DNA from: Shimia thalassica
GTDB lineage: Bacteria; Pseudomonadota; Alphaproteobacteria; Rhodobacterales; Rhodobacteraceae
Length of the DNA: 64,000 nucleotides
Direction: 5' to 3'
Assembly (NCBI RefSeq): GCF_001458215.1
Contig: NZ_CYTW01000001.1
Coordinates: 186,001-250,000, forward strand
In this document: one piece after another, positions 8,062-64,000 of the stretch
Numbering within the stretch: the first letter of the stretch is position 1
How the letters are laid out: every line of letters starts with the position of its first letter
The notes under the pieces: generated by a model
Told to the model about the DNA's origin: nothing
What the model saw: only the letters and a program-made list of their open reading frames with translations
The model's database searches: none
Made by a program: the position numbers and the translations under genes

Positions 8062-8170
8062 GTGGTTGTCACCACCTCTCTAAGTTTGTGTTGCAAGGAT
8101 TTGCAGGAAGCCGCCCTATAGCAAAGCAGATTTGGTTTGTCTAGTATGTGCCCGAGACAGGAGTACCGAA

Positions 8171-8845: not shown

Positions 8846-9038
8846 AGAAGCCTCCCGCCGCTTTGTAATCGCATCATAGATGCGGTTCAAAGCGTTGGGC
8901 GTGGCCTCGCGTTGCTCGGGGGCCACGTTACGACACGTATTGTCAGAGAATTTATGGTGTCATGCGACGCCTTCGGATTGCTCAGGGTGTCTGGGCTGAT
9001 AAGGTTCGCCCACAAACGCTTTGCCCTAGGAGACCCCC

Positions 9039-10022
9039 ATGACACAGACCATGCGCGCCATTGAGATCACTCAGCCCGGAGGGCCGGATGTCTTGCAAGT
9101 GACCGAGCGGCCTGTGCCGATGCCCGGGGCGGGCGAAGTGGTTATCCGGATTGCCTATGCAGGCGTGAACCGTCCGGACGCGCTACAGCGCGCCGGGGCC
9201 TATGCTCCGCCGCCAACAGCTAGTGATCTGCCCGGTCTTGAAGCGTCGGGGACAATTGTCGCTGTTGGCCCTGGTGTGGACGAGTGGGCGGAAGGTGACG
9301 ACGTCTGTGCCCTTTTGCCGGGTGGAGGGTATGCGGAATATGTGCTGACACCCGCCGCCCATTGTCTGCCTGTGCCCAAAGGCATGGATTTGAAGCGTGC
9401 GGCCTGTTTGCCCGAAACGTTCTTTACGGTCTGGTCCAATGTGTTTCAGCGCGGCGGCTTGCAAGCGGGTGAACGTTTCCTCGTGCATGGTGGGTCGAGC
9501 GGCATTGGAACGACAGCTATCCAACTGGCCAATGTTTTTGGCGCGCGTGTGTTCACAACCGCCGGTTCAGAAGAAAAATGTGCGGCCTGCCTTGATCTTG
9601 GTGCAGAGCGTGCGATCAATTATCGCGAAGAAGACTTTGTTGATGTCTTGCGCGCAGAAGGTGGCGCGAACCTGATCCTCGACATGGTGGGCGGTCCGTA
9701 TATCCCGCGCAATATCAAGACATTGTCGGATGACGGCAGGCTGGTTCAAATCGCGTTTTTGTCTGGTCCCAAGGTTGAGCTGAATTTTGCCCAAATCATG
9801 ACGCGGCGCCTGACGGTCACCGGCAGCACGCTTCGCCCGCAAAGTGATCTTGCAAAGGCGCGTATTGCGGCGGATCTGCGCGAGAAAGTCTGGCCATTGT
9901 TGGATGCGAGGCGCGTGGCTCCGGTTATGGATAGCGAATTTGCGCTGGAAGAGGCCGCGGCAGCCCATACCCGTATGGAAAGTAGCGGCCATATCGGCAA
10001 GATCGTTCTTAAAGTAAGCTGA
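9039..10022 (+). CDS. NAD(P)H-quinone oxidoreductase, PIG3/QOR type
   Basis: Zinc-independent medium-chain reductase of 327 residues. The N-terminal domain has AYAGVNRPDALQRAG, where zinc enzymes would carry Cys. The Rossmann motif is HGGSSGIGTTAIQLA near residue 153, and LDLGAERAINYREEDF is typical of the PIG3 subgroup. It reduces quinones or enones with NADPH. AGGAG lies 7 bases before ATG 9039. The 190 bases upstream show no gene. A short hairpin terminator follows. Confidence 0.88.
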   Translation: MTQTMRAIEITQPGGPDVLQVTERPVPMPGAGEVVIRIAYAGVNRPDALQRAGAYAPPPTASDLPGLEASGTIVAVGPGVDEWAEGDDVCALLPGGGYAEYVLTPAAHCLPVPKGMDLKRAACLPETFFTVWSNVFQRGGLQAGERFLVHGGSSGIGTTAIQLANVFGARVFTTAGSEEKCAACLDLGAERAINYREEDFVDVLRAEGGANLILDMVGGPYIPRNIKTLSDDGRLVQIAFLSGPKVELNFAQIMTRRLTVTGSTLRPQSDLAKARIAADLREKVWPLLDARRVAPVMDSEFALEEAAAAHTRMESSGHIGKIVLKVS

Positions 10023-51205: not shown

Positions 51206-52441
51206 TTAGGTTTTGATGGTGCCATCCGAGACCCACCGGTCCAGAACCTGAAGCACCTTGGCGGTGAATTCAGGGTCGTTGATATGACATTCAAGCGGGA
51301 TGTATTCGACATTGTCCGGCAGCGCAGCTTCAATTTCACTCACAAAAGCGGTCAGCCCGTCTTGGTCATGCAAATCGGCGCCCGGACGATCCCATTCATT
51401 GCAGCCGCCTTTGGGCATCAAAAACGCCGTGGCGCCTTTGGCTGTGGCCAGCTTCTCTGCATGGGCGCGTGCGACCTCGCGGCGTTCGTCGGCGTCAAGC
51501 ACAACGGATTTGAGCAGCCGGTTGTGGTCATGGGCCGGTTTGTGGCTCATGCGTTCGGGCAAGTCTTTCCAACCCACCATATCGACAAGATCATAGCAGG
51601 CAGGGGCCACCATTTGCGGCGTGGCGGTTTGGCCCGCATTTGTGAGGCGGTCAACGCCCGCCGACAGCCCGCCCATAAGATGGTTGCCGATTTCCTGCGT
51701 TGCAAAATCCATGACACAGGCGAAACGCCCTTCGGCTGCCAGAGATTCAAAGGCACGCCCGCCCATACCGGTGGCATGAAACACGGCCACTTCGAATCCG
51801 CGGTCTTCCAGCGCGGGTTTGAGGCTCACCATATAGCGCAGGATTGTTTTGCCGAATGAGGTCATGCCGATCAAAGGTTTATCGCCTGACGATTTTTCAA
51901 CCGCACGCGCGGCGCCCAGAACGGCACCTGCGGCTTGGGACAAGGAAGATTTGCAAACGGAATTGAGCCCATACAGGCCACCAGCCCAAAGGATCATCTG
52001 GATATCGGCAGCAAGGCGTTCTGGTGGCAGCAATTGTGAAAAGGACACCGTTGAAACCACGTATTTCGGAACACCCAAGGGCAATGCCTGACAGACATCC
52101 AGCGCGAGATCGGTCCCCATCGTGCCGCCAAGGATGATAACGCCATCAACTTTGCCCTCGGTGTGCAGACGCGATGCCAGCAAAGATGCTCCATAGGCCA
52201 TGATTTGCATGGCCGTGTTCTCGTCACCACTATCAATGGCCGCTTGAATGGACGACCCGCCCTCTTCGGCAACGGCATGTTTGGAATAGTCGGTCGGTGT
52301 GGAAGGATCGCCAAGAACACTGACGTCCATGGTCAAAACGCGTCCGCCCTGATCGACTATACGTCCACACAAATAGTTCAATTCGTCGTCTTTTGTGTCG
52401 TAAGTACCGACGACAAGGATGGTTTTGTCCTGAGACATCAT
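51206..52441 (-). CDS. Tm-1-like ATP-binding domain protein (UPF0261)
   Basis: A 411-residue protein of the UPF0261 family. The N-terminal half has ILVVGTYDTKDDELNYLCGR and IILGGTMGTDLALDVCQALP; the second half has PLIGMTSFGKTILRYMVSL, AVFHATGMGGRAFESLA and FLMPKGGCNEWDRPGADLHD. The plant homologue Tm-1 binds viral replication proteins; bacterial members are thought to be metabolic and their reaction is unknown. Its ATG overlaps the kinase stop (ATGA), making it the last gene of the tct-to-Tm-1 operon and suggesting a step in the same catabolism. Confidence 0.85.
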   Translation of the reverse strand: MMSQDKTILVVGTYDTKDDELNYLCGRIVDQGGRVLTMDVSVLGDPSTPTDYSKHAVAEEGGSSIQAAIDSGDENTAMQIMAYGASLLASRLHTEGKVDGVIILGGTMGTDLALDVCQALPLGVPKYVVSTVSFSQLLPPERLAADIQMILWAGGLYGLNSVCKSSLSQAAGAVLGAARAVEKSSGDKPLIGMTSFGKTILRYMVSLKPALEDRGFEVAVFHATGMGGRAFESLAAEGRFACVMDFATQEIGNHLMGGLSAGVDRLTNAGQTATPQMVAPACYDLVDMVGWKDLPERMSHKPAHDHNRLLKSVVLDADERREVARAHAEKLATAKGATAFLMPKGGCNEWDRPGADLHDQDGLTAFVSEIEAALPDNVEYIPLECHINDPEFTAKVLQVLDRWVSDGTIKT

Positions 52442-53373
52442 TGTCTTCCTTCCAGATAGTTTTGTGCCAACCCCAAGGCGCGGGCAATCATGCGTGTGGA
52501 TCGGGTTTGATTGCCCGGCTCGTTCAGGCGTGGAACAATCCAGCCCACATACGTGAGGGCGCGCAGCAGCAACGCCAGACCAAGTGCCTGCTGCGAAATC
52601 TGTGCCCGAGCGCTGTATCCTTCCAGCAATGCAGCGCGAATCTCCTTGAAATCAGGCTGTTCGAGATAGCGAAGCAGGAACGTCGCGAGTTCAAAAGCGC
52701 GGTAACCGATAACACAGTCGTCAAAATCCAGAATTCCGATCTTTCCCTCGTGCATCACGAGGTTTTCCGTCAAAAGATCAGCGTGGATGAGACCGACATC
52801 CTGTTCAAGTATTGCGCAATCATCCTGCGCCGCCTGCCGAACCGCTTGAAGAATTGCGATTTCATCAGGGCGCAGGTCAGGATGCTCCCAAAACCGGCCC
52901 CAAAGCGGCGTTTCGCCCACGATCTCTTCTGCTGTCCATTTGGGGCGCTCGAAATCCGCAGGACGTTGCCATTGGTCCGTTATCATGTGCAGGCGGGCCA
53001 TCTGCGCGCCCACCTTTCGCGCGACCTCGACAGGTTGTCCTGAAGTGATCGATGTGCCCTTGCCAATTGGCACGCCATCAAGCCACGTCAGAAGGCTGGC
53101 GTGGCTGTCCCCGACCTTGGGAATGAGCTGTCCATCTGCAGTCGCAATTGGAGTGGGCACATGAAGCCCCTGTTGCGACAGGTATTTCATCCACGCGAGT
53201 TCCGAGCGTAATTCGTTTAGCGATCTATATCCGGGTCGGTGCAGGCGCAGGGCATATTTCTGATCCCCGTGAGACACCGCATAGACGCGGTTTTCACGCT
53301 CTGCCAACAGATCGGGGGAAGACCCGGACAGGTTCCACAATTGCAACGCATCTTTGAGACTGGAATTGGTCAT
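52438..53373 (-). CDS. APH-type small-molecule kinase, hydroxylysine/ethanolamine kinase-like
   Basis: A 311-residue protein-kinase-like phosphotransferase. The catalytic loop is DVGLIHADLLTENLV (Asp base, Asn metal ligand) and the metal-binding Asp is in IGILDFDDCVIGYR. N-terminal ATP-binding parts are VYAVSHGDQKYALRLHRPG. The family includes homoserine, choline, ethanolamine and hydroxylysine kinases. ATGA overlaps tie it to the phospholyase-like gene before it and Tm-1-like gene after it, so it most probably phosphorylates the amino alcohol that the lyase then cleaves. Confidence 0.82.
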   Translation of the reverse strand: MTNSSLKDALQLWNLSGSSPDLLAERENRVYAVSHGDQKYALRLHRPGYRSLNELRSELAWMKYLSQQGLHVPTPIATADGQLIPKVGDSHASLLTWLDGVPIGKGTSITSGQPVEVARKVGAQMARLHMITDQWQRPADFERPKWTAEEIVGETPLWGRFWEHPDLRPDEIAILQAVRQAAQDDCAILEQDVGLIHADLLTENLVMHEGKIGILDFDDCVIGYRAFELATFLLRYLEQPDFKEIRAALLEGYSARAQISQQALGLALLLRALTYVGWIVPRLNEPGNQTRSTRMIARALGLAQNYLEGRQ

Positions 53374-54662
53374 TGCTCTAGGGGTGTCTCGGTCAGGGCT
53401 TCGTCCAGACGCGTCAACATGATGTCCGCATCTTCACGGGAAAAGGGCATGGGGGGGCGTATTTTCAAGGCGTTGTAGTGGATGCCCAGAAAGTTGAGCA
53501 AAACACCCTTTTGGCGCATGGCGTTCGCAATTCTTTTGGTGAATGCCGTGGCCGGTGTTTTGCTGTGCCGATCCAGAACCATTTCGGCCCCAAAGAATAG
53601 GCCCGAGCCACGCACATCCGCGATGCATTTGTGCGTTTCGCCCAGTTTGCGAAGACCTTCGCGCGCATATTCACCTACGGCGCGGGCGTTCTCCATCAAC
53701 CCTTCTTCCTGAACCACGCGTAAGGTCGCGAGCGCAGCGGCCGCCGAAACAGGGTTTCCACCAAACGTATTGAAATAGCGAAAGTTGCTGCGGAATGCGG
53801 ACATGATTTCAAGGCTGGTGACAACGCCACCAACCGGATGACCGTTGGCCATCGGTTTTCCCATGGTCACTATGTCAGGCAGAATGCCGGCCTTCTGATG
53901 ACCCCAGAAATCGGTGCCCAAGCGGCCAAAGCCGGGCTGGACCTCGTCTGCGATGACAACACCTCCGGCCTTGTGCACCGCATCAATCGCAGGTTGGAGC
54001 CAGCCCTTTTCGAGATCAGGAAAGCCTTCGTTTGCGAAATAGGGACAGATGATCAGAGCAGACAGTTCATGACCGCGTTCTTTCAGGTCCGCGATGGCCT
54101 TTTCAATCTCGGCGGCGAACGCCAGAGAATGTGCCTTGCCAGAGGTTCCGCCAAGCGGGCGAAAGCTGTCGGGGGCGGGAACAAAGGCGACATTGCTCCA
54201 CCGGTCCGGCGGCGGGTTGGTGCAAGACAGTTGTGACACTGCCATCGTGTTGCCGTGATAGGTGTGGTCGGTTGCGATCACGCCCGTGTTGCCGGTAATC
54301 CCGCGCGCCATGCGCAACGCGATGTCGTTCGCCTCGGACCCCGTGCAGGTCATGATGGCCGTGTTCAGCGGATCGGCAAAGGTATCGGTCAGCGACTCGA
54401 CATAATCGAGAATGCCTTCGTGCAGATACCTTGTGTGCGTATTGAGGGTGCTGGCCTGTTTCGTGATAGCCTCGACCACCTTAGGGTGGCAATGCCCCAC
54501 ATGGGGCACGTTGTTATAACAATCGAGGTATTTACGACCGTCTGCATCCCAGACCCACACACCTTTTCCCCGTACCATGTGAACGGGTTCTTCATAGAAG
54601 GTGCTGACATTGGGCCCAAGCAATTGAGCCCGACGGTCAATCAGTGTCTGCGTCGATGTCAT
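53370..54662 (-). CDS. Class III PLP enzyme resembling amino-alcohol phosphate phospholyases (ETNPPL/PHYKPL)
   Basis: A 430-residue PLP enzyme. Motifs shared with ethanolamine-phosphate and 5-phosphohydroxylysine phospholyases are LDCYNNVPHVGHCHPKVV, LNTHTRYLHEGILDYVE, TGSEANDIALRMAR, GFGRLGTDFWGHQ, the PLP Lys in TMGKPMANGHPVGGV, YFNTFGGNPVSAAA and LKIRPPMPFSREDADIM. Expected reaction: O-phosphorylated amino alcohol to aldehyde, ammonia and phosphate. ATG 54662 overlaps the dehydrogenase stop; ATG 54674 is the alternative. A plain transaminase cannot be excluded. Confidence 0.8.
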   Translation of the reverse strand: MTSTQTLIDRRAQLLGPNVSTFYEEPVHMVRGKGVWVWDADGRKYLDCYNNVPHVGHCHPKVVEAITKQASTLNTHTRYLHEGILDYVESLTDTFADPLNTAIMTCTGSEANDIALRMARGITGNTGVIATDHTYHGNTMAVSQLSCTNPPPDRWSNVAFVPAPDSFRPLGGTSGKAHSLAFAAEIEKAIADLKERGHELSALIICPYFANEGFPDLEKGWLQPAIDAVHKAGGVVIADEVQPGFGRLGTDFWGHQKAGILPDIVTMGKPMANGHPVGGVVTSLEIMSAFRSNFRYFNTFGGNPVSAAAALATLRVVQEEGLMENARAVGEYAREGLRKLGETHKCIADVRGSGLFFGAEMVLDRHSKTPATAFTKRIANAMRQKGVLLNFLGIHYNALKIRPPMPFSREDADIMLTRLDEALTETPLEQ

Positions 54663-56143
54663 AGTTTGATCCATGCAGTTTTCAGGTCGGTGTATTTCTC
54701 AAGGGCATGCAGGGATTTGTCATGCCCGTTGCCGGATTGTTTATGGCCACCCAGAGGCACGGTGTTATCGGCGCCGCCATATGTGTTTACGTGCACAACA
54801 CCGGATCGCACGCCGCGCACCATTTTATGTGCCCGTCCAAGGTTCGACGTCCACACACCGGCAGCAAGGCCGTAAATCGAATTGTTGGCGATCTCGATGG
54901 CTTCGGCGTCGGTTTTAAAAGAGGTGACGCCCAATACAGGTCCAAACACCTCTTGTTGCGCCAAGCGGTCGGTGGGTTTTACGCCCGTTACAATTGTCGG
55001 CTCCATATAATAGCCGCCGGTATCTTCGAGGATACGGTTCCCGCCAAGGGCAATTGTGTTGCCTTCGGCCTCGGCGCTGTCAATGAACCCGAGGTTCCCT
55101 GTCAGTTGGGTGAGAGAGTTTACGGCTCCGACGTCCGTGGACAAATCCAGGGGATTGCCAACCCGAAGTGCAGCAGCGTGTTGCGAAAGGGTCTCGACGA
55201 ACTCGTCATGAACAGACTCTTCAACCAAAAGCCGAGACCCCGCAACGCAGACCTGTCCCGAATTACGAAAGATGCCCATGGCCGAAACCTTGGCGGCTTC
55301 CTTGAGATCTGGAGCGTCGGCAAAGACGATATTCGGGGATTTGCCCCCAAGTTCCAAATAACACCGCTTCAAATTTGAGCGAGCAGAGTATTCAAGAAGA
55401 CGACGACCCACGCCCCCAGACCCGGTGAACACCAGAACATCCACATTCATAGACAGTGCCAATGCTTCGCCAGCAACCGCCCCTTGGCCGGTGACGACGT
55501 TGAAAACCCCATCCGGCAGCCCCGCCTCGGAGGCCAGTTCGGCCAGTCTCAACAGGGTCAAAGACGCTGTTTCGGCAGGTTTCAAAACCACCGAGTTGCC
55601 CATGGCCAAAGCCGGAGCTAGCTTCCATGCTCCGATCATCAACGGGAAGTTCCACGGCACGATTGCACCAACGACGCCGACGGGTTCTTTGTGCACAAGG
55701 CCCAGCACTCCGGGGTCGGTTGGGGCGATCTCGCCATAGACCTTGTCCAATGCTTCGGCATAATACCGGAACGTGCCCGCCGCAGAACCGGGTTCGGCCT
55801 TGAGCGCCATGTTGAGTTCGGTACCGTTGTCGCGCACGCCCAACACAGCCAGTTCAAGTGCGTGTTTCTCGATCAACTCGGCGAGTTTGAACAGCACTTT
55901 CTTGCGGCCTGCCGGTGCCATGCGGCTCCAGCGCCCGTCTTCAAAGGCTGCCCGTGCCGAGGCGACAGCGCGGTTTACGTCATCAGCATTGGCGCGCGCA
56001 ATGGTGGTTAGCGTTTGTCCGTTGATCGGGGATTGTACTTCAAGTGTTTCTCCCGAACCTTGCGTCCACGCTCCTTCAATAAATAGTCCTTGCGGCGCAA
56101 CAGGTGCATTCCGAAGTTCGTCGATGCGTGTTTGGTCGACCAT
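54659..56143 (-). CDS. Aldehyde dehydrogenase, PuuC-like
   Basis: A 494-residue ALDH. It has VGAIVPWNFPLMIGAWKLAP, VFTGSGGVGRRLLEYS, the general base in LELGGKSPNIVFAD and the nucleophile Cys in NSGQVCVAGSRLLVEES. The end SGNGHDKSLHALEKYTDLK is that of PuuC and gamma-aminobutyraldehyde-type enzymes. It should oxidise the aldehyde released by the lyase, with NAD+. AAGGAGG precedes ATG 56143. Its first 136 bases are overlapped by the tctA 3' end in another frame. Confidence 0.87.
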   Translation of the reverse strand: MVDQTRIDELRNAPVAPQGLFIEGAWTQGSGETLEVQSPINGQTLTTIARANADDVNRAVASARAAFEDGRWSRMAPAGRKKVLFKLAELIEKHALELAVLGVRDNGTELNMALKAEPGSAAGTFRYYAEALDKVYGEIAPTDPGVLGLVHKEPVGVVGAIVPWNFPLMIGAWKLAPALAMGNSVVLKPAETASLTLLRLAELASEAGLPDGVFNVVTGQGAVAGEALALSMNVDVLVFTGSGGVGRRLLEYSARSNLKRCYLELGGKSPNIVFADAPDLKEAAKVSAMGIFRNSGQVCVAGSRLLVEESVHDEFVETLSQHAAALRVGNPLDLSTDVGAVNSLTQLTGNLGFIDSAEAEGNTIALGGNRILEDTGGYYMEPTIVTGVKPTDRLAQQEVFGPVLGVTSFKTDAEAIEIANNSIYGLAAGVWTSNLGRAHKMVRGVRSGVVHVNTYGGADNTVPLGGHKQSGNGHDKSLHALEKYTDLKTAWIKL

Positions 56144-57627
56144 TTGGCCTCCTTGGTTTTTTTGCGTTCCAGCCAGAGATGGCGGAAGTGGATGAACAAA
56201 ACGCCCAGGATCATCAGGAACAGGATCATGGCGACCGGGCGATCGATAAAGTCGAAGGGGGTTTTGACACGTGCCATGCCAGCGCGCAGTTTGACCTCCA
56301 TGATGCCGCCAAGAACCATCCCGAGGATGATTGGCACGGCGGGCAGAGAGAGGCGTTTCAGGACAAATCCGAAGATGCCGAAACATGCGGCGATCAGGCA
56401 GTCGGTGACCGAGTTACGAAGCGAGTAAACACCCACGAAACTCAGAACAAGAATGCAGACGCCAAGGAAACGGTTGGGGATTTTCACGACCTTGATCAGG
56501 TGATTGGTCGCAAACAACAGGAAGATCAGAACCAGCACATTGAGGACCAGCAGGGCAAGATAAAGCGCCACGACAAAATCCATCTGGTTCTGGAACAACT
56601 GGGGGCCGGGTACGACGTTGTGCACATAAAACACGGACAGCATCATCGCTGTGAGGGCCTCGCCGGGGATACCCAGCGCCAGCAAGGGTACCATCGCCGC
56701 AGCGGGCACCGCGTTGTTGGCGGTTTCAGCGGCAATCAAGCCTTCCGAAGACCCGTGACCAAAGTCTTGGGGGCGTTTTGATGTGCGCTGAGCATAGGTA
56801 TAGCTCAGAAATTGCGCCGTGAACTCGCCCACGCCGGGGATCATGCCCATCAACACCCCAAAAGTTCCCGAGATTCCGGCCACGCGCGGGTGGCGCACCA
56901 ATTCGCGGAACCCTTGGAACATACCGCCCCGCAGTTTCGTCATACGCACCTTTTCGTCTTCTCCCTGAAGCAGGAAGAACGCTTGAGACAGGGCAAAGAG
57001 CCCAAGAACCACAACGATCAGGTCAACGCCACCGGACAGAAAAGACTGATCAAAGGTGAAACGTTTGGAGTATTTTACAGGCTCAAGACCAACGGTGTTC
57101 AGAAAGATCCCGAAACAGGCCAGAGCCGCCGCGATCAAGGCCTGCCCGCGATGGGCCACAACAACGAGCAGCAAGCCCAACAGCGCTGCGAGGAAGATTT
57201 CGCGGCTGCCGAACATAGGGGCGATTTTGGCCAGAACAGGGGCGAACAAGATCAGGCAGACAACAGAAAAGATGCCTCCAAAGAAAGACGAGGAATAAGC
57301 CAGAGACAGCGCACGACGGGCTTCGCCGCGTGTGGTCATCGGGTAGCCATCATAGGTGGTCAACGCGTTCACGGCCGTGCCGGGTGTATTGATCAGGATC
57401 GCCGGAATGGACCCGCCGTACATGGACGATCCGTAGATGCCCAACAGCACCGTCAGCCCCACAATCGGGTCCATCGAAAAGGTGGCAGGCAACAAGATGG
57501 CGATGGCCACTGCCGGCCCCACGCCGGGGATTGCGCCAATCAAAACGCCACCGACCGAGCCCGCAAGCAAGGCCAGAAGAACATCCCAGCGGGCCAGAAT
57601 GTCGAAAGAAGAAAGAAGCAGCTCCAT
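56008..57627 (-). CDS. tctA: Tripartite tricarboxylate transporter large membrane subunit
   Basis: A 539-residue permease with about twelve helices. Family motifs: VGGVLIGAIPGVGPAVAIAI, SMYGGSIPAILINTPGT, GVLMGMIPGVGEFTAQFLSY and VPLLALGIPGEALTAMML. It pairs with TctB and the periplasmic TctC to take up a carboxylate using the ion gradient. The last 45 residues or so (KWSTKHASTNFG onward, ending PRSTDKR) are strongly basic and are read out of frame from the ALDH start region, an unusual tail. Confidence 0.9.
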   Translation of the reverse strand: MELLLSSFDILARWDVLLALLAGSVGGVLIGAIPGVGPAVAIAILLPATFSMDPIVGLTVLLGIYGSSMYGGSIPAILINTPGTAVNALTTYDGYPMTTRGEARRALSLAYSSSFFGGIFSVVCLILFAPVLAKIAPMFGSREIFLAALLGLLLVVVAHRGQALIAAALACFGIFLNTVGLEPVKYSKRFTFDQSFLSGGVDLIVVVLGLFALSQAFFLLQGEDEKVRMTKLRGGMFQGFRELVRHPRVAGISGTFGVLMGMIPGVGEFTAQFLSYTYAQRTSKRPQDFGHGSSEGLIAAETANNAVPAAAMVPLLALGIPGEALTAMMLSVFYVHNVVPGPQLFQNQMDFVVALYLALLVLNVLVLIFLLFATNHLIKVVKIPNRFLGVCILVLSFVGVYSLRNSVTDCLIAACFGIFGFVLKRLSLPAVPIILGMVLGGIMEVKLRAGMARVKTPFDFIDRPVAMILFLMILGVLFIHFRHLWLERKKTKEAKWSTKHASTNFGMHLLRRKDYLLKERGRKVREKHLKYNPRSTDKR

Positions 57628-57634
57628 GATGCCC

Positions 57635-58165
57635 TCAGAAATTCAGAATGAAGAAGCTGCGAAGTGATCCGGGCAGGTATTCATAGACCATGCCTCCGGG
57701 GATTTTCACGTCCAGCAAGGATTTGAACAAGATCACCACAGCAGCGCCAAAGGCCGCAGAAATCCAGAGCATCTGTTTGTCGCGGTACCCCATGCGCCAG
57801 CTCATCAAAGGCATGAACAAAAGCGTTACGGGCAAATAGCCAAAGATCGGCACCAAAAGCACATAAACCAGAAACCAGACCACCCACTCGATGCCGAGAA
57901 ACCAGATTTTCCACTCGGCATAGTCCGCAGTCACAAATTTGCGCCGCGGCAGCTTCCAAAGATGCAACCCGCCAAACAGCACCATGCCGCCAATGGATAC
58001 AGCGGGCCAAAACCGTGGCTGGGCAAAGAACTTGGTCCGTTTTGCCCACTTGGTTTCTTCGCCAAGTTGGGAAAGCAGCAAAAGCGCAGCCACCAGAAAG
58101 ACAATTGCAAACAGCAGTTGTCCACGCAGGGGACCTTTAAAGGTGCTGGGTTTTGGGTCGCTCAT
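57635..58165 (-). CDS. tctB: Tripartite tricarboxylate transporter small membrane subunit
   Basis: A 176-residue membrane protein with four helices (LLFAIVFLVAALLLLSQLG, FWPAVSIGGMVLFGGLHLW, WVVWFLVYVLLVPIFGYLP, AAFGAAVVILFKSLLDVKI). Position between tctC and tctA and the helix count fit TctB; sequence conservation in this family is low. It lies 7 bases before tctA. Confidence 0.85.
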   Translation of the reverse strand: MSDPKPSTFKGPLRGQLLFAIVFLVAALLLLSQLGEETKWAKRTKFFAQPRFWPAVSIGGMVLFGGLHLWKLPRRKFVTADYAEWKIWFLGIEWVVWFLVYVLLVPIFGYLPVTLLFMPLMSWRMGYRDKQMLWISAAFGAAVVILFKSLLDVKIPGGMVYEYLPGSLRSFFILNF

Positions 58166-58189
58166 TTATCCAACCTCTGGATACAGAAA

Positions 58190-58217
58190 GGGCCGGGGGT
58201 TTGCGTACCTCCGGCCC
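58190..58217 (-). promoter_or_regulatory. Intercistronic hairpin between tctC and tctB
   Basis: GGGCCGG (58190-58196) pairs with CCGGCCC (58211-58217); the loop holds GGT..ACC that may extend it. On the minus strand only TTTCT follows, so it is a weak terminator or an mRNA-stabilising end. It would let tctC be made in excess over tctBA, as expected of a binding protein. Confidence 0.55.
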
Positions 58218-58229
58218 GTTTTTTCTTAA

Positions 58230-59171
58230 TTACTCGAGGATACCCGAGATCACCGCACCGGTCGCTTTGTCCTGAGCGATGATCGCGGCCGAAGCCTCTG
58301 CATCTGCCCAGTAAACCTGTGCACCGGTTTCTTTTGCAATCGCTTGTGCGCGGTCGCTCATCACGGTTTTCTCAGCAACGGCCGCAATTTTTTCACGGAC
58401 ATCCGCAGGGGTGTCCTTGTGAACAAACAGACCGTTCCAAAGGGCGATATCCAGCGATGAATCCAGCTCTCCGATGGTTGGCGCATCTGGCACCAGCGGG
58501 ATGCGGTCACCGGTGATTGCGGTCAACACCTTCACTTTGTCGAGGCAAGGCAGGATCAGCTGAAGTGTGGTGTTGATGACATCGGCATCACCCGAGGCAA
58601 GCGTGTTACAGTCCAGTGCGTCAAACGCTGCATCGGAGCCCCACTCGAAACCAGCGTTGATGGCATAGGCCATAGTCACCTGGGTTGGTGTCAGGACCTG
58701 ACCAAAGTGACCAAGGGCTACGTCGTTGGATTTTGCATACTCGGCGAGTTCCCCCATGGACGAGTAAGGCGCATCACCAGATGTCGCGATGACAAAGGGG
58801 TAGGTCAGGAAAATGCCGATGGGTTCGAACACTTCGTCGGCCAGTTCATCAATGCCGATTTCATGACCGATGACGGGAACCGCAGGAACGAAAGACCCGA
58901 CGGTATAGCCGTCAGCAGGCGCCGTCGCGACCTCGATAGCACCGGGGAAAGGGCCGCCGCCGCCGCCAGGTTTGTTCACAACAGCTGCCGAGACGCCATA
59001 AGCCTTTTGAAAGTCTTCCGCGATCATGCGTGTCAGCACGTCTTCCAGATCGCCCGGAGGCCACGGAACAACAAAGCTGACGGGTTTCTCGGGATATTCC
59101 GCGAGAGCTGCACCACCAATGGTGGCCATCGAAAGGGCAAGTGCGCCGCCCAGAATGGTTTTGGTCTTCAT
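58230..59171 (-). CDS. tctC: TctC/Bug-type periplasmic binding protein
   Basis: A 313-residue exported protein. The signal peptide is KTKTILGGALALSMATIGGAALA, shown here as residues 2-23 (KTILGGALALSMATIGGAA). The Bug fold starts YPEKPVSFVVPWPPGDLEDV, then NKPGGGGGPFPGAIEVATAP and NGLFVHKDTPADVREKIAAV. It captures the substrate for TctAB. The usual GGxxD of dicarboxylate binders is changed to PPGDLEDV, hinting at a different ligand. GGGAGA precedes ATG 59171. First gene of the leftward operon. Confidence 0.9.
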   Translation of the reverse strand: MKTKTILGGALALSMATIGGAALAEYPEKPVSFVVPWPPGDLEDVLTRMIAEDFQKAYGVSAAVVNKPGGGGGPFPGAIEVATAPADGYTVGSFVPAVPVIGHEIGIDELADEVFEPIGIFLTYPFVIATSGDAPYSSMGELAEYAKSNDVALGHFGQVLTPTQVTMAYAINAGFEWGSDAAFDALDCNTLASGDADVINTTLQLILPCLDKVKVLTAITGDRIPLVPDAPTIGELDSSLDIALWNGLFVHKDTPADVREKIAAVAEKTVMSDRAQAIAKETGAQVYWADAEASAAIIAQDKATGAVISGILE

Positions 59172-59240
59172 AGTCGTCTCCCTGATAGATCCGGTTATTG
59201 TGGATCGGTTCATTATTTAAACCAAAGGTTCGAAAATAGA

Positions 59241-59302
59241 TTGACAGGTTAAGCATATTTCTGTCAACAGTTTTAGTGACACTGCGGAAAATCAATTTCC
59301 GC
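59241..59302. promoter_or_regulatory. Two palindromes between tctC and the IclR regulator
   Basis: TTGACAG-N13-CTGTCAA (59241-59267) and GCGGAAA-N5-TTTCCGC (59284-59302) are both perfect in their arms. The second has the GGAAA..TTTCC layout of the E. coli IclR box, but with a 5-base rather than 3-base centre. Either may be the IclR-family operator controlling tctC and iclR. Confidence 0.55.
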
Positions 59303-59340
59303 CCGGATTAATATTTAGACAAGGAGCGGAGGCATTTTCG

Positions 59341-60138
59341 ATGGGGACTGTATCTAAAGGATTGTCTTTGCTTGGGTATTTCTCGAGATATCGATCTGAA
59401 ATCGGGTTGAGCGAGATGACTCGCCTGTCAGGAATGAACAAGGCAACGGTGTATCGTTTGCTGACCGAATTGGCAGAACAGGGATTCGTTGAGCAGATCG
59501 GGACGGGGCGAGAATACCGGCTCGGGCCCGTTTTTCCCCGACTCGCCGCCCTTAGAGAAGCGGCTGTTCCCACGCGGGAGGTTGCTCAAAAAGTGCTGAG
59601 CGGCCTGTGTGAGCGCACTGGGGAAACCGCGCACATGTCCATTCGTCAAGGCACGACACTCTCGGTGGTTAGTTTCAGCTACAGCGCCCTTCACGGGACA
59701 CGTGTCACGATGGAAGACGCCGAACAGATCGCGTTCCACTCGACAAGTTCAGGACACGCCGTGCTGGCGTTCAGCCCGCCGACCTTTGTGGACGAGATCC
59801 TGAGCGGTCCGCTGGAAAAGAAAACAGAACAGACCGAAACCAATCCCGAGATCATTCGCGAGCGCCTTCAAGAGGCCGCCAGAACCTGTATCGCGGAATC
59901 GGTCAGTGGCCACGAGATGGATGTGCATTCGCATGCCTGTCCGGTATTCGACGCGCGGCAGGGCTGCTATGGCGCGGTTGCCGTTGCTGCACCAGTGGCC
60001 CGCATGACCCCGGATCTTCAGAACACCATTCGCACCGAAGTGCTGAGATCGTCACTCGAATTGACCCGCCTTCTTGGCGGTTTTGTCCCCGATACCTTCA
60101 AATCCAAGGCCTCCGAGTTGCTTGGCGAGCCTGCCTAA
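59341..60138 (+). CDS. IclR family transcriptional regulator
   Basis: A 265-residue regulator. The winged helix has GLSEMTRLSGMNKATVYRLL and EQGFVEQIGTGREYRLGPV; the C-terminal effector domain contains ETAHMSIRQGTTLSVVSF and FHSTSSGHAVLAFSP and DARQGCYGAVAVAAPV. Divergent from the tct operon and 27 bases before the class III transaminase on its own strand. It probably senses the pathway substrate and controls both directions. Confidence 0.92.
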   Translation: MGTVSKGLSLLGYFSRYRSEIGLSEMTRLSGMNKATVYRLLTELAEQGFVEQIGTGREYRLGPVFPRLAALREAAVPTREVAQKVLSGLCERTGETAHMSIRQGTTLSVVSFSYSALHGTRVTMEDAEQIAFHSTSSGHAVLAFSPPTFVDEILSGPLEKKTEQTETNPEIIRERLQEAARTCIAESVSGHEMDVHSHACPVFDARQGCYGAVAVAAPVARMTPDLQNTIRTEVLRSSLELTRLLGGFVPDTFKSKASELLGEPA

Positions 60139-60165
60139 TCCACTTGATCCGAAAGGACTGATCTT

Positions 60166-61521
60166 ATGAAAGACAGCAATTTCCTAAAAGAAAAAAATGC
60201 CAAGTCCTTGTGGCATCCGATGGCGCATCCCGCCGATAGTCTCAACAACCCGCCTGCCATCATTACGGGTGCACAAGGGGTGCGCATCACCGATGTAGAT
60301 GGACATGAGGTTGTGGACGGCGTTGGGGGACTTTGGAACGTCAATCTTGGCTTCTCATGCCAACCGGTCAAAGACGCCATCGCGCGCCAGCTTGATGTTT
60401 TGCCCTATTACTCGACCTTCCGTGGCACGACCAATGACGCGGTTATCGAGCTGTCAGAGGTGCTGCGCGACTTCTATGCACCCGACGGTCTGACACGTGC
60501 GTTTTACACTTCGGGGGGATCAGATTCGGTTGAAACCGCACTGCGTCTTGCCCGGCAATACCACAAGGTCAAAGGCGAAGAAGGCCGCACAAAATTCCTG
60601 TCTTTGAAAAAGGGCTATCATGGCACGCACATGGGGGGGGCTTCGGTAAACGGGAACGCAAATTTCCGCACCCAATACGAACCTCTTTTGCCGGGCTGCT
60701 TTCACATCCCAGCGCCATATACCTATCGCAATCCCTTCAATGAAGCCGATCCGGAAAAGCTGGCTGCTTTGTGTCTGCAGGCCTTTGAGGACGAGGTTGC
60801 GTTCCAGGGCGCAGGCACAATTGCGGCTTTCATCATGGAGCCGATCCTTGGTGCGGGCGGCGTGATCCCTCCTCATAAGAGCTTTATGCCGGGTGTGCGC
60901 GAAATCTGTACCCGCAATGGTATTTTGTTGATCGCGGACGAAGTTATCACAGCCTTTGGGCGGACAGGCAGCTGGACCGGATCACGTCATTGGGGTGTGC
61001 AGCCTGACATGATGGCCACGGCCAAGGCGATCACCAATGGCTACTTCCCGTTTGGCGCCGTAATGATCGCCGATCACGTGGCCGAGGTGTTTGAAAATGA
61101 CAAGACCGGCAAAGCGGCGATTGGCCATGGATATACGTATTCTGGACATCCGGTAGGGGCCGCTGCGGCCTTGGCGTGCCTGGAAGAAACTCTGCGCCTT
61201 AATGTCAAAGACAACGCCGCAGAACGTGGTACGGAACTTCACAACGGTTTGCTGGGTCTTATGCAGACCTATGACGTGATTGGTGATGTGCGTGGCGGCC
61301 ATGGTTTGATGTGCGCCATTGAACTTGTCAGCGACCGCGCAACCAAATCGCCCATCGATAAAGCCTCGGCAGGAAAGATTCAGGAAGAGGCTTACAAAGC
61401 AGGAGCAATGGTGCGCGTTTCAGGGCCAAACATCATCCTGTCACCGCCTTTGGTTCTGACGTCCGACGATGTTCAGGTCATCCTGTCGTCTCTCGAAACA
61501 GGCCTCAAGGCCGTGAGCTAA
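60166..61521 (+). CDS. Class III aminotransferase, omega-amino acid/putrescine:pyruvate type
   Basis: A 451-residue PLP enzyme. It shows SLWHPMAHPADSLNNPPA, GLWNVNLGFSCQPVKDAI, TSGGSDSVETALRLARQ, MEPILGAGGVIPPH, LIADEVITAFGRTGSWTGS and the PLP Lys 287 in MATAKAITNGYFPFG. The transaminases of this group move amino groups from omega-amino acids, diamines or beta-alanine to pyruvate. It follows iclR by 27 bases and ends at a strong terminator. In the proposed pathway it would remove the amino group from an intermediate or recycle it. Confidence 0.87.
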   Translation: MKDSNFLKEKNAKSLWHPMAHPADSLNNPPAIITGAQGVRITDVDGHEVVDGVGGLWNVNLGFSCQPVKDAIARQLDVLPYYSTFRGTTNDAVIELSEVLRDFYAPDGLTRAFYTSGGSDSVETALRLARQYHKVKGEEGRTKFLSLKKGYHGTHMGGASVNGNANFRTQYEPLLPGCFHIPAPYTYRNPFNEADPEKLAALCLQAFEDEVAFQGAGTIAAFIMEPILGAGGVIPPHKSFMPGVREICTRNGILLIADEVITAFGRTGSWTGSRHWGVQPDMMATAKAITNGYFPFGAVMIADHVAEVFENDKTGKAAIGHGYTYSGHPVGAAAALACLEETLRLNVKDNAAERGTELHNGLLGLMQTYDVIGDVRGGHGLMCAIELVSDRATKSPIDKASAGKIQEEAYKAGAMVRVSGPNIILSPPLVLTSDDVQVILSSLETGLKAVS

Positions 61522-61544
61522 ATCTCGGGTTTGTTAAAATCAGA

Positions 61545-61571
61545 AAGGCGCCCAATCGGGCGCCTTTTTTC
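61545..61571 (+). terminator. Rho-independent terminator after the transaminase
   Basis: AAGGCGCCC (61545-61553), loop AATC, GGGCGCCTT (61558-61566), then TTTT. It lies between the convergent transaminase and ferredoxin genes. Confidence 0.88.
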
Positions 61572-61594
61572 TTGAAGGGTGCGATGAAACCGCT

Positions 61595-61909
61595 TCAGGG
61601 TTGTGGCACAATCAGGACCAGACCATCCAGCTCACCACTTGCCTCGATCTGACAGCTTAGGCGACTTTGGTCGGTGCGTTCGGCCTCGGCGACATCCAGC
61701 ATTGCATCTTCAAAATCATCCGCGACGCCGGTCTTTTCCACCCAGGCCGGATCAACATAAACGTGGCAGGTTGCACAGCTCAGACAACCGCCGCATTCTC
61801 CGACAACACCAGGCACATTGTTGTCGACTGCGGCCTGCATCATGTTGGTGCCGTCAGAAACCTCTGCGGTGATTTCTTCTCCATTGGGCAATTTCCAAAT
61901 GGCTTTCAT
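61595..61909 (-). CDS. [2Fe-2S] ferredoxin, putidaredoxin/adrenodoxin type
   Basis: A 104-residue ferredoxin. Cluster ligands are Cys 39, 45, 48 and 86 (GECGGCLSCATCHV and RLSCQIEA); a fifth Cys at 42 sits in the loop. The C-terminal LDGLVLIVPQP is that of P450-linked ferredoxins. It should pass electrons to the P450 upstream; a ferredoxin reductase is not seen. It ends its unit, 78 bases after the glutamine-synthetase-like gene. Confidence 0.92.
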   Translation of the reverse strand: MKAIWKLPNGEEITAEVSDGTNMMQAAVDNNVPGVVGECGGCLSCATCHVYVDPAWVEKTGVADDFEDAMLDVAEAERTDQSRLSCQIEASGELDGLVLIVPQP

Positions 61910-61987
61910 AATGTTCTCCTTTGCAAGGATTGCGCGAGGGCCACGAGATGGGCCCCATGCGCAGATATCGAGAGACAGGGGATGGGA

Positions 61988-63277
61988 TCACACGAAATAG
62001 ATATAGAAGTCGCGCAGCGCGTCGCCTTCGAGATCTCGGGTCTTTTTGACCTCTTTCTCTTTCATGAAAACGTGATTGTCGACGAGCATCCGACCGACCG
62101 CGTCTGCCAAAACTGTATCTTTTTTGAGGTCAGAAACCGCGCCTTTCAGATCCGCGGCGCAGCTTTCTTTTGCGTCGCTTCTTTCAAACCCGTCTCCGGT
62201 TTCAATCGGCTGCAAAGGATAGTTGTTTTCAACACCCAGCAAGGAAGCCTGTAAAACGGCGGCAACGGCGGTGTAGGGGTTCGCGGTGGCGTCCGCCATC
62301 CGGTGCTCAAGCCGAGATTTCGGTCCCCCTTCCGAGCTGATCCGCGTGGTGACATTGCGATGATCGCCACCCCAGTTCTTCCAGAAACCGCTCAGCGATC
62401 CCGGTTGCAGGCGTTGATAGCTGTTGGCCGTTGGCGCGATAAGGCCGGCCAATCCTTTGTGGTGGTGCAACACACCCGCAAGACACTGTTTGGACAGATC
62501 ATTAAGCGTGTCCGGCAAGTTGCGCTCACCAGAAGACAGGGCATTTCCACCTGATACATCCGAGAACGAGAAGTTGATATGCATGCCGGATCCGCCTGCT
62601 TCGGCGATGGGTTTGGGCATGAACGTCAGGATAATCCCGTGTTCCAGCGCAATCTCGCGGGCCATAAGACGGAAGAGAACGATGTCATCGACGGCCTGTA
62701 CTGCATTGTCGAATGTCAGCGTGTATTCGAATTGCGGGGCGTCGAATTCAGCCGTGATCATATCAAGGCGAAAACCCAATTCGTCCGCTTTTTCCCAGAT
62801 GGCATCGTTGAAACGCATTGGATCAGACAGCGGTCCGGTGCCATACACAACGGCACCCGGCGTATCATAAGGGCGCAGGTTTCCGTCACTGTCGGCTTGC
62901 ATTGCAAAGGCTTCGAGTTCGATACCGACCTTCGGAGTCAGCCCTTTTGCCTCCCACGCCGCGACGGCGCGTTTGAGGGCACCGCGCGGGCACAAGGGCA
63001 GGTTGGCGCCTTCGTGATCATACAGGTCGCCCAGTACAATCTTGGTGTGAGGGTCCCAGCTGTCACGGATGTCGTCATGTTTCCAGCGCAACTCCATATC
63101 CGGCAGCCCCTCCATCATCATGGCGCCGGGGGCGGGCAGCAGGTCCTTGTCGTAATGGACGCCAAAGGTAGACCGGCAGAACCGTGTCTCGGAATCGGCC
63201 AGCTTGGACGCGGGCAGGTATTTGCCCCGCATGATGGAAAGGTGGTCGCAGAATACGGCGCGCAGACGGTCTCTCAT
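61988..63277 (-). CDS. Glutamine synthetase family ligase (gamma-glutamylamide synthetase-like)
   Basis: A 429-residue GS-fold enzyme. It has VGIELEAFAMQ (metal Glu), GGSGMHINFSFSD (ATP/metal His), LIAPTANSYQRLQPGSLS and RLEHRMADATANPYTAVAA. The length is short for GlnA, and the PTANSYQRL/RLEHR features are those of gamma-glutamyl amide ligases such as PuuA and IpuC. Expected reaction: amine + Glu + ATP to gamma-glutamylamide. GGGAGG precedes ATG 63277; TTG 63292 is less likely. It lies 11 bases after the P450 stop. Confidence 0.86.
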   Translation of the reverse strand: MRDRLRAVFCDHLSIMRGKYLPASKLADSETRFCRSTFGVHYDKDLLPAPGAMMMEGLPDMELRWKHDDIRDSWDPHTKIVLGDLYDHEGANLPLCPRGALKRAVAAWEAKGLTPKVGIELEAFAMQADSDGNLRPYDTPGAVVYGTGPLSDPMRFNDAIWEKADELGFRLDMITAEFDAPQFEYTLTFDNAVQAVDDIVLFRLMAREIALEHGIILTFMPKPIAEAGGSGMHINFSFSDVSGGNALSSGERNLPDTLNDLSKQCLAGVLHHHKGLAGLIAPTANSYQRLQPGSLSGFWKNWGGDHRNVTTRISSEGGPKSRLEHRMADATANPYTAVAAVLQASLLGVENNYPLQPIETGDGFERSDAKESCAADLKGAVSDLKKDTVLADAVGRMLVDNHVFMKEKEVKKTRDLEGDALRDFYIYFV

Positions 63278-63288
63278 CTTGGCCTCCC

Positions 63289-64000
63289 TCAATTAAGTTT
63301 CACACGGACAGGCAATTCTTTGATGCCGCCGACAAAGTTGGATCGCAGGAATTTTTGCTCGCCATTAGCTTCTATGCTTTTCAGCCGCTTGGAAAGCTCT
63401 TGGAACAGAACGCGCACTTCCAGGCGCGCGAGCCACATGCCCAGACACACATGCGGACCGGATTGGCCAAACGACATGTGCTTGTTCGGGCTGCGCATAA
63501 GGTCTACGCGGAAAGGATTGTCGAAGACCTCGTCATCCCGATTGGCCGAAGACCACCAGAACAGAACCTTGTCGCCTTCGCGCATGGTTTTTCCGTGCGC
63601 CTCGAAATCGCGGGTCAACGTCCGGCGGAAGTACAAGGCGGGGGTGGCCCAACGGATGATTTCATCTGGTGCCAATTCCCAAAGAGCATCGCCACCGGTC
63701 TGCATCTGGGTCAGCAATTCTGGCTGATGGCACATGGCCTGAATGCCTGCGGCAATCGAATATCGCGTGGTGTCGTTGCCAGCCGCGACTAGCAAACAAA
63801 AGAAATTGCGAAACTCTTCTTCCGAAATGGTGTTGCCGTCTTTGTCAGGTTGCAAGATCAGGTGCAGAACGCCGTTCGTGTCGCCGGTCGCGTTTTTGTG
63901 CGCCATCAGCTCTTTTGCGTATTGAAACAGTTCCGCACCGGCGGGCGAGTTGAAGGGCATCATGCGAAATTCGTCGGTCGTCATCTTGTCCAGCACATGA
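63289..64000 (-). CDS. Cytochrome P450, N-terminus beyond window edge
   Basis: The last 236 or so residues of a P450. The I-helix oxygen-activation motif is VAAGNDTTRYS, the K-helix ExxR is DEIIRWATP, and the heme loop is MSFGQSGPHVCLGMWLARLE with the thiolate Cys. The FGxxGxHxC form with one extra residue is that of the CYP125/CYP142-like bacterial group. It hydroxylates an aliphatic carbon using electrons from the ferredoxin. First visible gene of a leftward P450, GS-like, ferredoxin unit. Roughly the first 170 residues are missing. Confidence 0.9.
   Translation of the reverse strand, partial: HVLDKMTTDEFRMMPFNSPAGAELFQYAKELMAHKNATGDTNGVLHLILQPDKDGNTISEEEFRNFFCLLVAAGNDTTRYSIAAGIQAMCHQPELLTQMQTGGDALWELAPDEIIRWATPALYFRRTLTRDFEAHGKTMREGDKVLFWWSSANRDDEVFDNPFRVDLMRSPNKHMSFGQSGPHVCLGMWLARLEVRVLFQELSKRLKSIEANGEQKFLRSNFVGGIKELPVRVKLN

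What the first reader, a model, noticed from the sequence alone, without database searches (positions are those of the whole stretch)
51206..64000. Candidate new amine or amino-alcohol catabolic system joining gamma-glutamylation, P450 hydroxylation and a kinase-phospholyase pair
Seen: an operon of TctCBA, PuuC-like ALDH, ETNPPL/PHYKPL-like lyase, APH-type kinase and Tm-1-like protein next to an IclR regulator, a class III transaminase and a P450, GS-like ligase and ferredoxin unit. Known: GS-like ligases start putrescine (PuuA) and isopropylamine (IpuC) breakdown by gamma-glutamylation, and kinase plus phospholyase turns amino alcohols into aldehydes. Inference: amine, gamma-glutamylamide, P450-hydroxylated amide, free amino alcohol, phosphate ester, aldehyde, acid. 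I know of no described pathway combining all these parts with a Tct transporter. A gamma-glutamyl hydrolase is missing here and may lie beyond 64000.
Basis: partly seen in the sequence, partly recalled or inferred. Interest (0 to 1): 0.8.

Follow-up and report, generated by a model that had tools for sequence, protein, structure and literature searches.

The report
Roseobacter gene cluster degrading aromatic amines
The genes are real and belong to a cluster, conserved in many marine roseobacters, that most likely breaks down tyramine-like aromatic amines and feeds them into a known ring-opening pathway, rather than breaking down small alkylamines as first guessed.

Summary
The window carries TctCBA-ALDH-phospholyase-kinase-UPF0261 on the minus strand, IclR and a class III transaminase (AT) on the plus strand, and P450-GS-like ligase-ferredoxin on the minus strand. 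The missing hydrolase exists: a class I glutamine amidotransferase starts about 0.6 kb past 64000. Next to it lies a homoprotocatechuate (Hpa) ring-cleavage operon.

The setting points to aromatic amines. Over 295 family genomes the ligase (59 genomes) co-occurs with AT (56 of 59), an aromatic amino acid decarboxylase (54 of 59) and HpaD (51 of 59); an unrelated catabolic gene shows no clear link (p 0.12).

My reading: tyramine is gamma-glutamylated, hydroxylated by the P450, released by the amidotransferase, transaminated, oxidised to 3,4-dihydroxyphenylacetate and ring-cleaved. The kinase-phospholyase pair is an optional side entry, perhaps for octopamine-type amines: 25 of 59 ligase genomes have no such lyase.

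The single linear route through kinase and lyase, and the alkylamine substrate, are not supported. No step has been assayed, the hydroxylation site is inferred, and most HpaD genomes lack HpaB whether or not they carry the ligase.

The parts
51206..52441 (-). UPF0261 / Tm-1-like protein, function unknown; last gene of the tct operon
   Evidence: Pfam UPF0261 N and C domains, NCBIfam PRK02399.1-4 625 bits above cut-off 556; solved relatives 9mpy and Tm-1
52438..53373 (-). APH-fold small-molecule kinase, predicted amino-alcohol kinase
   Evidence: Pfam APH 124 bits; HADLLTEN and LDFD motifs; a kinase lies beside the lyase in 60 of 60 lyase regions
53370..54674 (-). PLP phospholyase (ETNPPL/PHYKPL-like), predicted to turn an amino-alcohol phosphate into an aldehyde
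   Evidence: Best solved relatives 5g4i phospholyase 386 bits and 6tor ethanolamine-phosphate phospho-lyase 363 bits; NNVPHVGH and MGKP motifs
54659..56143 (-). aldehyde dehydrogenase, PuuC-like
   Evidence: Pfam Aldedh 542 bits; best NCBIfam PuuC 561 bits, below its cut-off 850; ELGGK and GQVC motifs; start inferred from the frame, overlaps tctA by about 136 nt
56008..57627 (-). TctA large permease of a tripartite tricarboxylate transporter
   Evidence: Pfam TctA 441 bits
57635..58165 (-). TctB small permease
   Evidence: Pfam TctB 54 bits
58230..59213 (-). TctC substrate-binding protein
   Evidence: Pfam TctC 64 bits
59341..60138 (+). IclR-family regulator, divergent from the tct operon
   Evidence: Pfam HTH_IclR and IclR_C; PcaR/PcaU-type subfamily is best NCBIfam match, below cut-off
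60166..61521 (+). class III amine transaminase, predicted aromatic amine transaminase
   Evidence: NCBIfam PRK07481 733 bits above cut-off 575; closest solved relative omega-transaminase 5lh9; present in 56 of 59 ligase genomes and 80 of 92 HpaD genomes
61595..61909 (-). [2Fe-2S] ferredoxin, likely P450 partner
   Evidence: Pfam Fer2 40 bits; CGGCLSCATC motif
61988..63292 (-). GS-like ligase, predicted gamma-glutamyl-(aromatic amine) ligase; TTG start at 63292 or ATG at 63277
   Evidence: Pfam Gln-synt_C 249 bits; below the cut-offs of all five NCBIfam GS/PuuA models listed; ammonium-site residues of GlnA absent; in a clade with 100/100 support
63289..64000 (-). cytochrome P450 (3' part; the gene runs to about 64551)
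   Evidence: Pfam p450 65 bits; closest solved chains CYP125-type 317 bits; a P450 match of at least 45% identity is in 53 of 57 fetched ligase regions

Best explanation
The cluster is a catabolic unit for phenylethylamine-type aromatic amines, chiefly tyramine made from tyrosine, that ends in the homoprotocatechuate pathway encoded beside it. Proposed steps: (1) a decarboxylase, elsewhere in this genome, makes tyramine; (2) the GS-like ligase joins it to the gamma-carboxyl of glutamate; (3) the P450 with its ferredoxin hydroxylates the protected amine, most likely at ring position 3, giving gamma-glutamyl-dopamine; (4) the class I amidotransferase just past 64000 cuts off glutamate; (5) the class III transaminase makes the arylacetaldehyde; (6) the ALDH makes 3,4-dihydroxyphenylacetate; (7) HpaD, HpaE and the following enzymes open and break the ring. 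The kinase-phospholyase pair is an optional second entry: it would phosphorylate a beta-hydroxylated amine such as octopamine or noradrenaline and eliminate phosphate and ammonia, giving the same aldehyde. TctCBA would be an uptake system and IclR the local regulator. Shown: gene identity, neighbourhood and co-occurrence. Inferred: every substrate and reaction.
For: In this genome an hpa operon lies about 1.5-7.5 kb from the P450 start, with HpaD, HpaD_Fe, HpaE and HpaH above curated cut-offs. Of 295 genomes of the family: ligase in 59, with HpaD in 51, decarboxylase in 54, transaminase in 56 (Fisher 2e-23, 1e-15, 3e-25); within 20 kb in 11 of 51, 11 of 54 and 29 of 56. Control EutD-like gene: 42 of 59 against 146 of 236, p 0.12. 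The decarboxylase's best solved relatives are DOPA and tyrosine decarboxylases (386 and 348 bits); decarboxylase and HpaD lie within 20 kb in 34 of 80 genomes with both and in one run of hpa genes in 14 of 20 HpaD regions viewed. Transaminase-HpaD: 80 of 92, p 4e-33. Lyase-HpaD within 20 kb in 13 of 40 genomes holding both, including ligase-free G038, G073, G075, G082; on a Rhizobium and a Shinella plasmid, kinase, lyase, transaminase and UPF0261 stand beside hpa genes with no P450 or ligase annotated in the 17 kb shown. Outside the family, a Streptomyces plasmid has ligase, P450, ferredoxin and reductase beside HpaD-like and HpaE-like genes, and a Novosphingobium plasmid has ligase and P450 with the like. 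Classic 4-HPA 3-monooxygenase (PF11794, E<=1e-15) is absent from this genome and from 44 of 51 ligase+HpaD genomes.
Against: No enzyme was assayed. The lack of HpaB does not single out ligase genomes: 33 of 41 HpaD genomes without the ligase also lack it, so another hydroxylase or another substrate exists there. The P450's closest solved relatives are CYP125-type, which by recall hydroxylate sterol and lipid side chains, no support for ring hydroxylation. Other neighbours are PaaA (9 of 61 named loci of at least 16 kb) or fumarylacetoacetase (9 of 61), so the downstream ring pathway is not always Hpa. In this genome the decarboxylase is on another contig, and NCBIfam does not name it: for the relative scanned (L066) the best model is diaminobutyrate decarboxylase at 154 bits, far under the cut-off 900. 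Within 60 lyase regions, Hpa neighbours were not significantly commoner for block-B lyases (at least one: 7 of 25 against 3 of 35, p 0.08; at least two: 4 against 2, p 0.22). The Streptomyces and Novosphingobium HpaD-like and HpaE-like proteins score below cut-off, and a second P450 stands in the Streptomyces region. TctCBA, UPF0261 and the HAD hydrolase of some relatives are unexplained. All co-occurrence tests treat genera as independent.
Confidence: 0.58

Rival explanations
1. One reading: an alkylamine or phenylethylamine is gamma-glutamylated, the P450 hydroxylates the side chain, and the freed amino alcohol goes through kinase and phospholyase to an aldehyde. With an aromatic amine this would be tyramine to octopamine to 4-hydroxyphenylacetaldehyde.
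For: All enzyme classes are present in one locus; ligase and lyase co-occur (34 of 59, p 1e-6) and lie within 20 kb in 8 of 34 genomes with both; the Ipu pathway hydroxylates a side chain at the gamma-glutamyl level (PMC6776027, section 22 read).
Against: 25 of 59 ligase genomes have no lyase at E<=1e-140 (24 of these 25 have the transaminase); some clusters run from the ALDH straight to UPF0261 without kinase and lyase, e.g. TM1040 and L048, L052, L058. Hydroxylating and then eliminating would give the same aldehyde that a transaminase gives directly.
Confidence: 0.15
2. Two separate units that merely neighbour each other: block B (Tct, transaminase, ALDH, kinase, lyase, UPF0261) degrades aromatic amines and amino alcohols, while ligase-P450-amidotransferase handles some other amine.
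For: The blocks can stand apart: block B lies elsewhere in the genome in G070, G096, G052, G261, G009; block B genes stand without block A in the regions shown of the R. pomeroyi DSS-3 megaplasmid (its chromosome was not searched) and a Rhizobium plasmid.
Against: Both blocks are independently linked to the decarboxylase and to HpaD, so a common aromatic theme is simpler.
Confidence: 0.15
3. The substrate is phenylethylamine or another amine lacking the 4-hydroxyl, drained through phenylacetyl-CoA or homogentisate rather than homoprotocatechuate.
For: PaaA near block A in 9 of 61 named loci and fumarylacetoacetase in 9 of 61.
Against: HpaD accompanies 51 of 59 ligase genomes, and the hpa operon itself adjoins the block in this genome.
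Confidence: 0.15

Closest known systems
Ipu isopropylamine pathway (Pseudomonas KIE171; two clusters in Paenarthrobacter aurescens TC1)
   Same: GS-family ligase, P450 with ferredoxin, and class I glutamine amidotransferase in one cluster; N-glutamylated intermediates (PMC6776027: passages, section 22; one TC1 cluster seen).
   Different: Ligase 29.5% identical to IpuC, P450 25.6% to the TC1 P450, amidotransferase no blastp hit at E<=1e-3 to the TC1 gene beside that P450; no ferredoxin reductase seen in the cluster; aromatic-pathway neighbours.
Glutamyl organic amine synthetases, GoaS (AtdA1, NpaA1)
   Same: GS-family ligase without ammonium-site residues, starting aromatic amine breakdown (PMC11335346, passages read).
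   Different: Those serve aniline and naphthylamine breakdown; here the partner is a P450 and the neighbours are Hpa genes.
Class III PLP phospholyases: A1RDF1 (5g4i), human ETNPPL (6tor), PHYKPL
   Same: Sequence class and a kinase partner.
   Different: Known ones act on ethanolamine phosphate or phosphohydroxylysine (recalled); here neighbours suggest an aromatic amino alcohol.
Homoprotocatechuate (Hpa/Hpc) meta-cleavage pathway
   Same: HpaD, HpaE and HpaH beside block A.
   Different: No HpaB found in this genome; a decarboxylase stands among the hpa genes in 14 of 20 HpaD regions viewed.
Puu putrescine pathway
   Same: gamma-glutamylation logic, PuuC-like ALDH.
   Different: Ligase scores 183 against PuuA cut-off 650, ALDH 561 against PuuC cut-off 850.

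Membership tests
Ipu pathway | gamma-glutamyl-amine ligase of the IpuC lineage | tested here: not met
   29.5% identity; clade of 16 rows, 100/100, with IpuC outside it
Ipu pathway | P450 plus ferredoxin and ferredoxin reductase in the cluster | tested here: inconclusive
   P450 and ferredoxin present; no reductase seen by eye among ORFs listed; P450 distant from the TC1 one (25.6%)
Ipu pathway | class I amidotransferase as gamma-glutamyl hydrolase | tested here: met
   GATase with GACFGHQ and HPE motifs beside the P450; a GATase match in 52 of 57 fetched regions. Activity not tested.
Ipu pathway | isopropylamine as substrate | not testable with these tools
   needs an assay
GoaS-type ligase | GS family with metal and glutamate ligands kept, ammonium-site Asp and flap Glu lost | tested here: met
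   alignment with the genome's GlnA (L001): FDGSS and PGFEAP replaced, metal-ligand motifs kept (residue roles recalled, in part)
Phospholyase (ETNPPL/PHYKPL/A1RDF1) | closer to phospholyases than to transaminases | tested here: met
   386 and 363 bits against 197 for the next solved family
Phospholyase (ETNPPL/PHYKPL/A1RDF1) | elimination of phosphate and ammonia from an amino-alcohol phosphate | not testable with these tools
   needs an assay
Homoprotocatechuate pathway | HpaD, HpaE, HpaH above curated cut-offs beside the block | tested here: met
   409.8>321.4, 762.7>638.35, 380.4>351.5; HpaI 339.4<368.8 and HpaG-C 157.7<276.4 fall short
Homoprotocatechuate pathway | 4-hydroxyphenylacetate 3-monooxygenase HpaB | tested here: not met
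   no PF11794 match at E<=1e-15 in this genome
Puu pathway | PuuA and PuuC equivalogs | tested here: not met
   183<650 and 561<850 bits

The most novel reading that the evidence does not exclude
Marine roseobacters degrade tyrosine-derived tyramine by a protect-and-hydroxylate route: a P450 3-hydroxylates gamma-glutamyl-tyramide to gamma-glutamyl-dopamine, standing in for HpaBC. The attached kinase and PLP phospholyase are enzymes that open octopamine and noradrenaline to arylacetaldehydes.
Probability: 0.27. Interest if true: 0.75.

Novelty: new variant of a known kind. Interest (0 to 1): 0.6.

Why it matters
If right, it gives a widespread marine group a route from tyrosine and aromatic biogenic amines to central metabolism that current annotation hides (the genes are labelled glutamine synthetase family protein, aspartate aminotransferase family protein, homoserine kinase). 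It would extend gamma-glutamyl protection chemistry to P450 hydroxylation of arylethylamines, and would offer a testable answer to how bacteria turn octopamine-type amino alcohols into arylacetic acids.

Tried and rejected
Rejected: ordinary glutamine synthetase (ammonium-site residues lost; below the listed GS cut-offs). Rejected as membership: Ipu and Puu (identities and cut-offs). Set aside: the P450 as proven HpaBC substitute, because HpaB is about equally rare in HpaD genomes with and without the ligase (7 of 51 against 8 of 41). A test of block-B lyases against other lyases for Hpa neighbours was not significant. The S. canus ligase is not an ortholog: it groups with S. lunaelactis outside the roseobacter clade, so that cluster is a parallel, not a replicate.

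Literature searches without a paper on the point, judged from the listings (titles, starts of abstracts): 20 of 194 listed; 40 of 1,091 listed. One search gave the two papers that I used. The library holds only open-licence PMC papers, so this is weak evidence of absence. PMC127573, the original Ipu paper, is not held and is known to me only through PMC6776027. PMC5064897 passages mention a few homoprotocatechuate genes in one roseobacter.

Limits of the counts: E-value cut-offs (1e-80 ligase, 1e-140 lyase, 1e-110 decarboxylase, 1e-90 HpaD, 1e-200 transaminase, 1e-15 HpaB, 1e-100 EutD) were my choices. The control counts EutD-like proteins (188 of 295 genomes), of which only 48 of 295 pass the family's own cut-off; its p-values were ligase 0.12, HpaD 0.06, decarboxylase 0.19, transaminase 0.12, lyase 1.0. 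Regions were fetched for 57 of 60 ligase places (G000 seen in L006; G095 on a 3-kb contig and the fragment in G287 left out) and for 60 of 93 lyase places (the best-scoring, skipping six seen beside the ligase). The 20 HpaD regions were chosen with the coordinates in view, so 14 of 20 there is not an unbiased rate: it is 6 of 12 in ligase-free and 8 of 8 in ligase genomes. Binomial p-values assume a uniform position in a genome of about 3.9 Mb. Structure prediction and fold search were not used.
Full report
What is there. Every gene named in the finding is present and open at about the stated place. On the minus strand, overlapping or nearly so, run tctC, tctB, tctA, ALDH, a class III PLP enzyme, an APH kinase and a UPF0261 protein (59213 down to 51206). 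IclR and a class III transaminase follow on the plus strand (59341-61521), and P450, GS-like ligase and ferredoxin on the minus strand (64551 down to 61595). The true ALDH start is probably 56143, so it overlaps tctA by about 136 nt; in Ruegeria sp. TM1040 the annotated genes overlap by 118 nt.

Beyond the window edge. The window is G000:C1:186001-250000. A class I glutamine amidotransferase lies divergent from the P450 (Pfam GATase 60 bits; motifs GACFGHQ and HPE). After it come GntR, HpaI, HpaH, a HpaG-like hydrolase, HpaD, HpaD_Fe and HpaE. HpaD, HpaD_Fe, HpaE and HpaH pass their curated cut-offs; HpaI and HpaG do not. By eye I saw no ferredoxin reductase there.

The ligase. It scores below the curated cut-offs of the five NCBIfam glutamine synthetase and PuuA models listed. 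Aligned with this genome's GlnA it keeps the metal-ligand motifs but lacks the FDGSS aspartate and the flap glutamate of PGFEAP (roles recalled). PMC11335346 (passages read) reports the loss of such catalytic residues in glutamyl organic amine synthetases. In a tree of 24 sequences the roseobacter-family ligases and one Novosphingobium sequence form a clade of 16 with 100/100 support, with IpuC and this genome's four other GS-family proteins outside; several outside branches are long and their places unsure.

The lyase and kinase. The lyase is nearest to two solved phospholyases. In 60 lyase regions fetched from 93 lyase places, a kinase lies beside it on the same strand in 60 of 60. By my thresholds 25 of 60 regions also hold the transaminase, TctA or UPF0261 and 35 of 60 do not. 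This genome has both kinds (the second at C6, region L141).

Conservation of the blocks. Regions of up to 20 kb around the ligase were fetched for 57 of 60 places. A P450 match is in 53 of 57, amidotransferase in 52, GntR 29, transaminase 27, TctA 31, UPF0261 21, ALDH 20, lyase 5, kinase 5, a Hpa marker (HpaI alone counted) 16, a Paa marker 3. In a second set, the 61 of 80 named loci that are at least 16 kb long, transaminase is in 42, TctA 47, ALDH 38, UPF0261 33, lyase 12, kinase 10, decarboxylase 17, and some aromatic-pathway gene in 30. The two sets overlap in part. The closest named relatives of the ligase are Shimia at 91-93%, so the window is probably from Shimia; yet the one other genome of the window's genus in the 295 has no ligase at E<=1e-80 (G210).

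The aromatic clue. A recurring neighbour of the ligase has DOPA and tyrosine decarboxylases as best solved relatives, though NCBIfam has no model that it passes. In 20 HpaD regions (12 from genomes without the ligase, 8 with) it stands among the hpa genes, usually between hpaD and hpaG, in 14 (6 of 12 and 8 of 8); these regions were chosen with its coordinates in view. Over 295 genomes of the family, from 294 genera, the ligase is in 59, lyase in 90, decarboxylase in 138, HpaD in 92, transaminase in 111. Co-occurrence: ligase with transaminase 56, with decarboxylase 54, with HpaD 51, with lyase 34; transaminase with HpaD 80; decarboxylase with HpaD 80. Within 20 kb on one contig, in the same order: 29 of 56, 11 of 54, 11 of 51, 8 of 34, 23 of 80 and 34 of 80. 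The control, an EutD-like ectoine gene, shows no clear link to the ligase (42 of 59 against 146 of 236, p 0.12). Relatedness of the genomes is not corrected for.

What this says about the route. Of 25 ligase genomes without a lyase, 24 have the transaminase, 23 HpaD and 22 the decarboxylase. The transaminase, not the kinase-lyase pair, is therefore the more regular next step. The lyase is tied to HpaD by itself: within 20 kb in 13 of 40 genomes holding both, some without the ligase, and on a Rhizobium and a Shinella plasmid kinase, lyase, transaminase and UPF0261 adjoin hpa genes with no P450 or ligase annotated in the region. This fits a second entry from beta-hydroxylated aromatic amines to the same aldehyde. 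Against that, Hpa neighbours were not significantly commoner for block-B lyases than for the others (7 of 25 against 3 of 35, p 0.08).

Where the P450 acts. This is inference. HpaB is absent from this genome and from 44 of 51 ligase+HpaD genomes. In Streptomyces and Novosphingobium clusters ligase and P450 adjoin HpaD-like and HpaE-like genes with no HpaB annotated; those HpaD-like proteins score 125-127 bits, below the cut-off 316, and the Streptomyces region holds a second P450. But 33 of 41 HpaD genomes without the ligase also lack HpaB, so the argument is suggestive only. The P450's nearest solved relatives are CYP125-type, and it is 25.6% identical to a TC1 Ipu P450.

Known or new. The chemistry works like the Ipu pathway as told in PMC6776027 (section 22 read), and the ligase like GoaS enzymes; Ipu membership is not claimed. 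My searches of the held open-access library listed no paper that by its title or abstract start describes this route, which is weak evidence because subscription papers are missing and long listings were cut. I rate it a new variant of a known kind. The kinase-lyase role for octopamine-type amines is the least certain and most interesting part.

Noticed in passing
L141 (G000:C6:135700-155600), lyase at C6:145055: A second lyase-kinase pair (60% identical lyase) without the Tct, transaminase or UPF0261 genes near by; such regions are 35 of 60 lyase regions. Substrate unknown.
   Followed up: partly
window 56008-56143: tctA and the ALDH gene overlap by about 136 nt in different frames; the same gene pair overlaps by 118 nt in Ruegeria sp. 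TM1040.
   Followed up: no
L062 13437-19899, also L200, L216, L222, L236: Alternative upstream neighbourhood of block A: fumarylacetoacetase, MBL-fold protein, FAD monooxygenase PRK08132, aromatic amino acid decarboxylase, HpaI; suggests a homogentisate-type outlet.
   Followed up: partly
L007 9097-12895, also L209, L219, L234, L237: PaaABCDE phenylacetyl-CoA epoxidase genes directly upstream of block A in Ruegeria and Leisingera relatives.
   Followed up: no
L271 (Sagittula stellata plasmid) 5920-9227: Another GS-amidotransferase-P450 unit (P450 37% identical) beside ring-hydroxylating dioxygenase and salicylyl-CoA hydroxylase genes: same logic, probably another amine.
   Followed up: no
L011 5970-6620 and L010 5685-6362: An HAD-IA hydrolase travels with the transaminase, UPF0261 and lyase in Rhizobium, Shinella and some roseobacters; role unknown.
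   Followed up: no
G210 (same genus as the window's genome): The one other genome of the genus among the 295 has no ligase at E<=1e-80 though it has the decarboxylase and a 67% transaminase: block A is patchy even within a genus.
   Followed up: no
L006 10691-15265: A 1524-residue protein with many acidic repeats that by eye look like calcium-binding RTX-type repeats, about 9-13 kb past the window edge.
   Followed up: no
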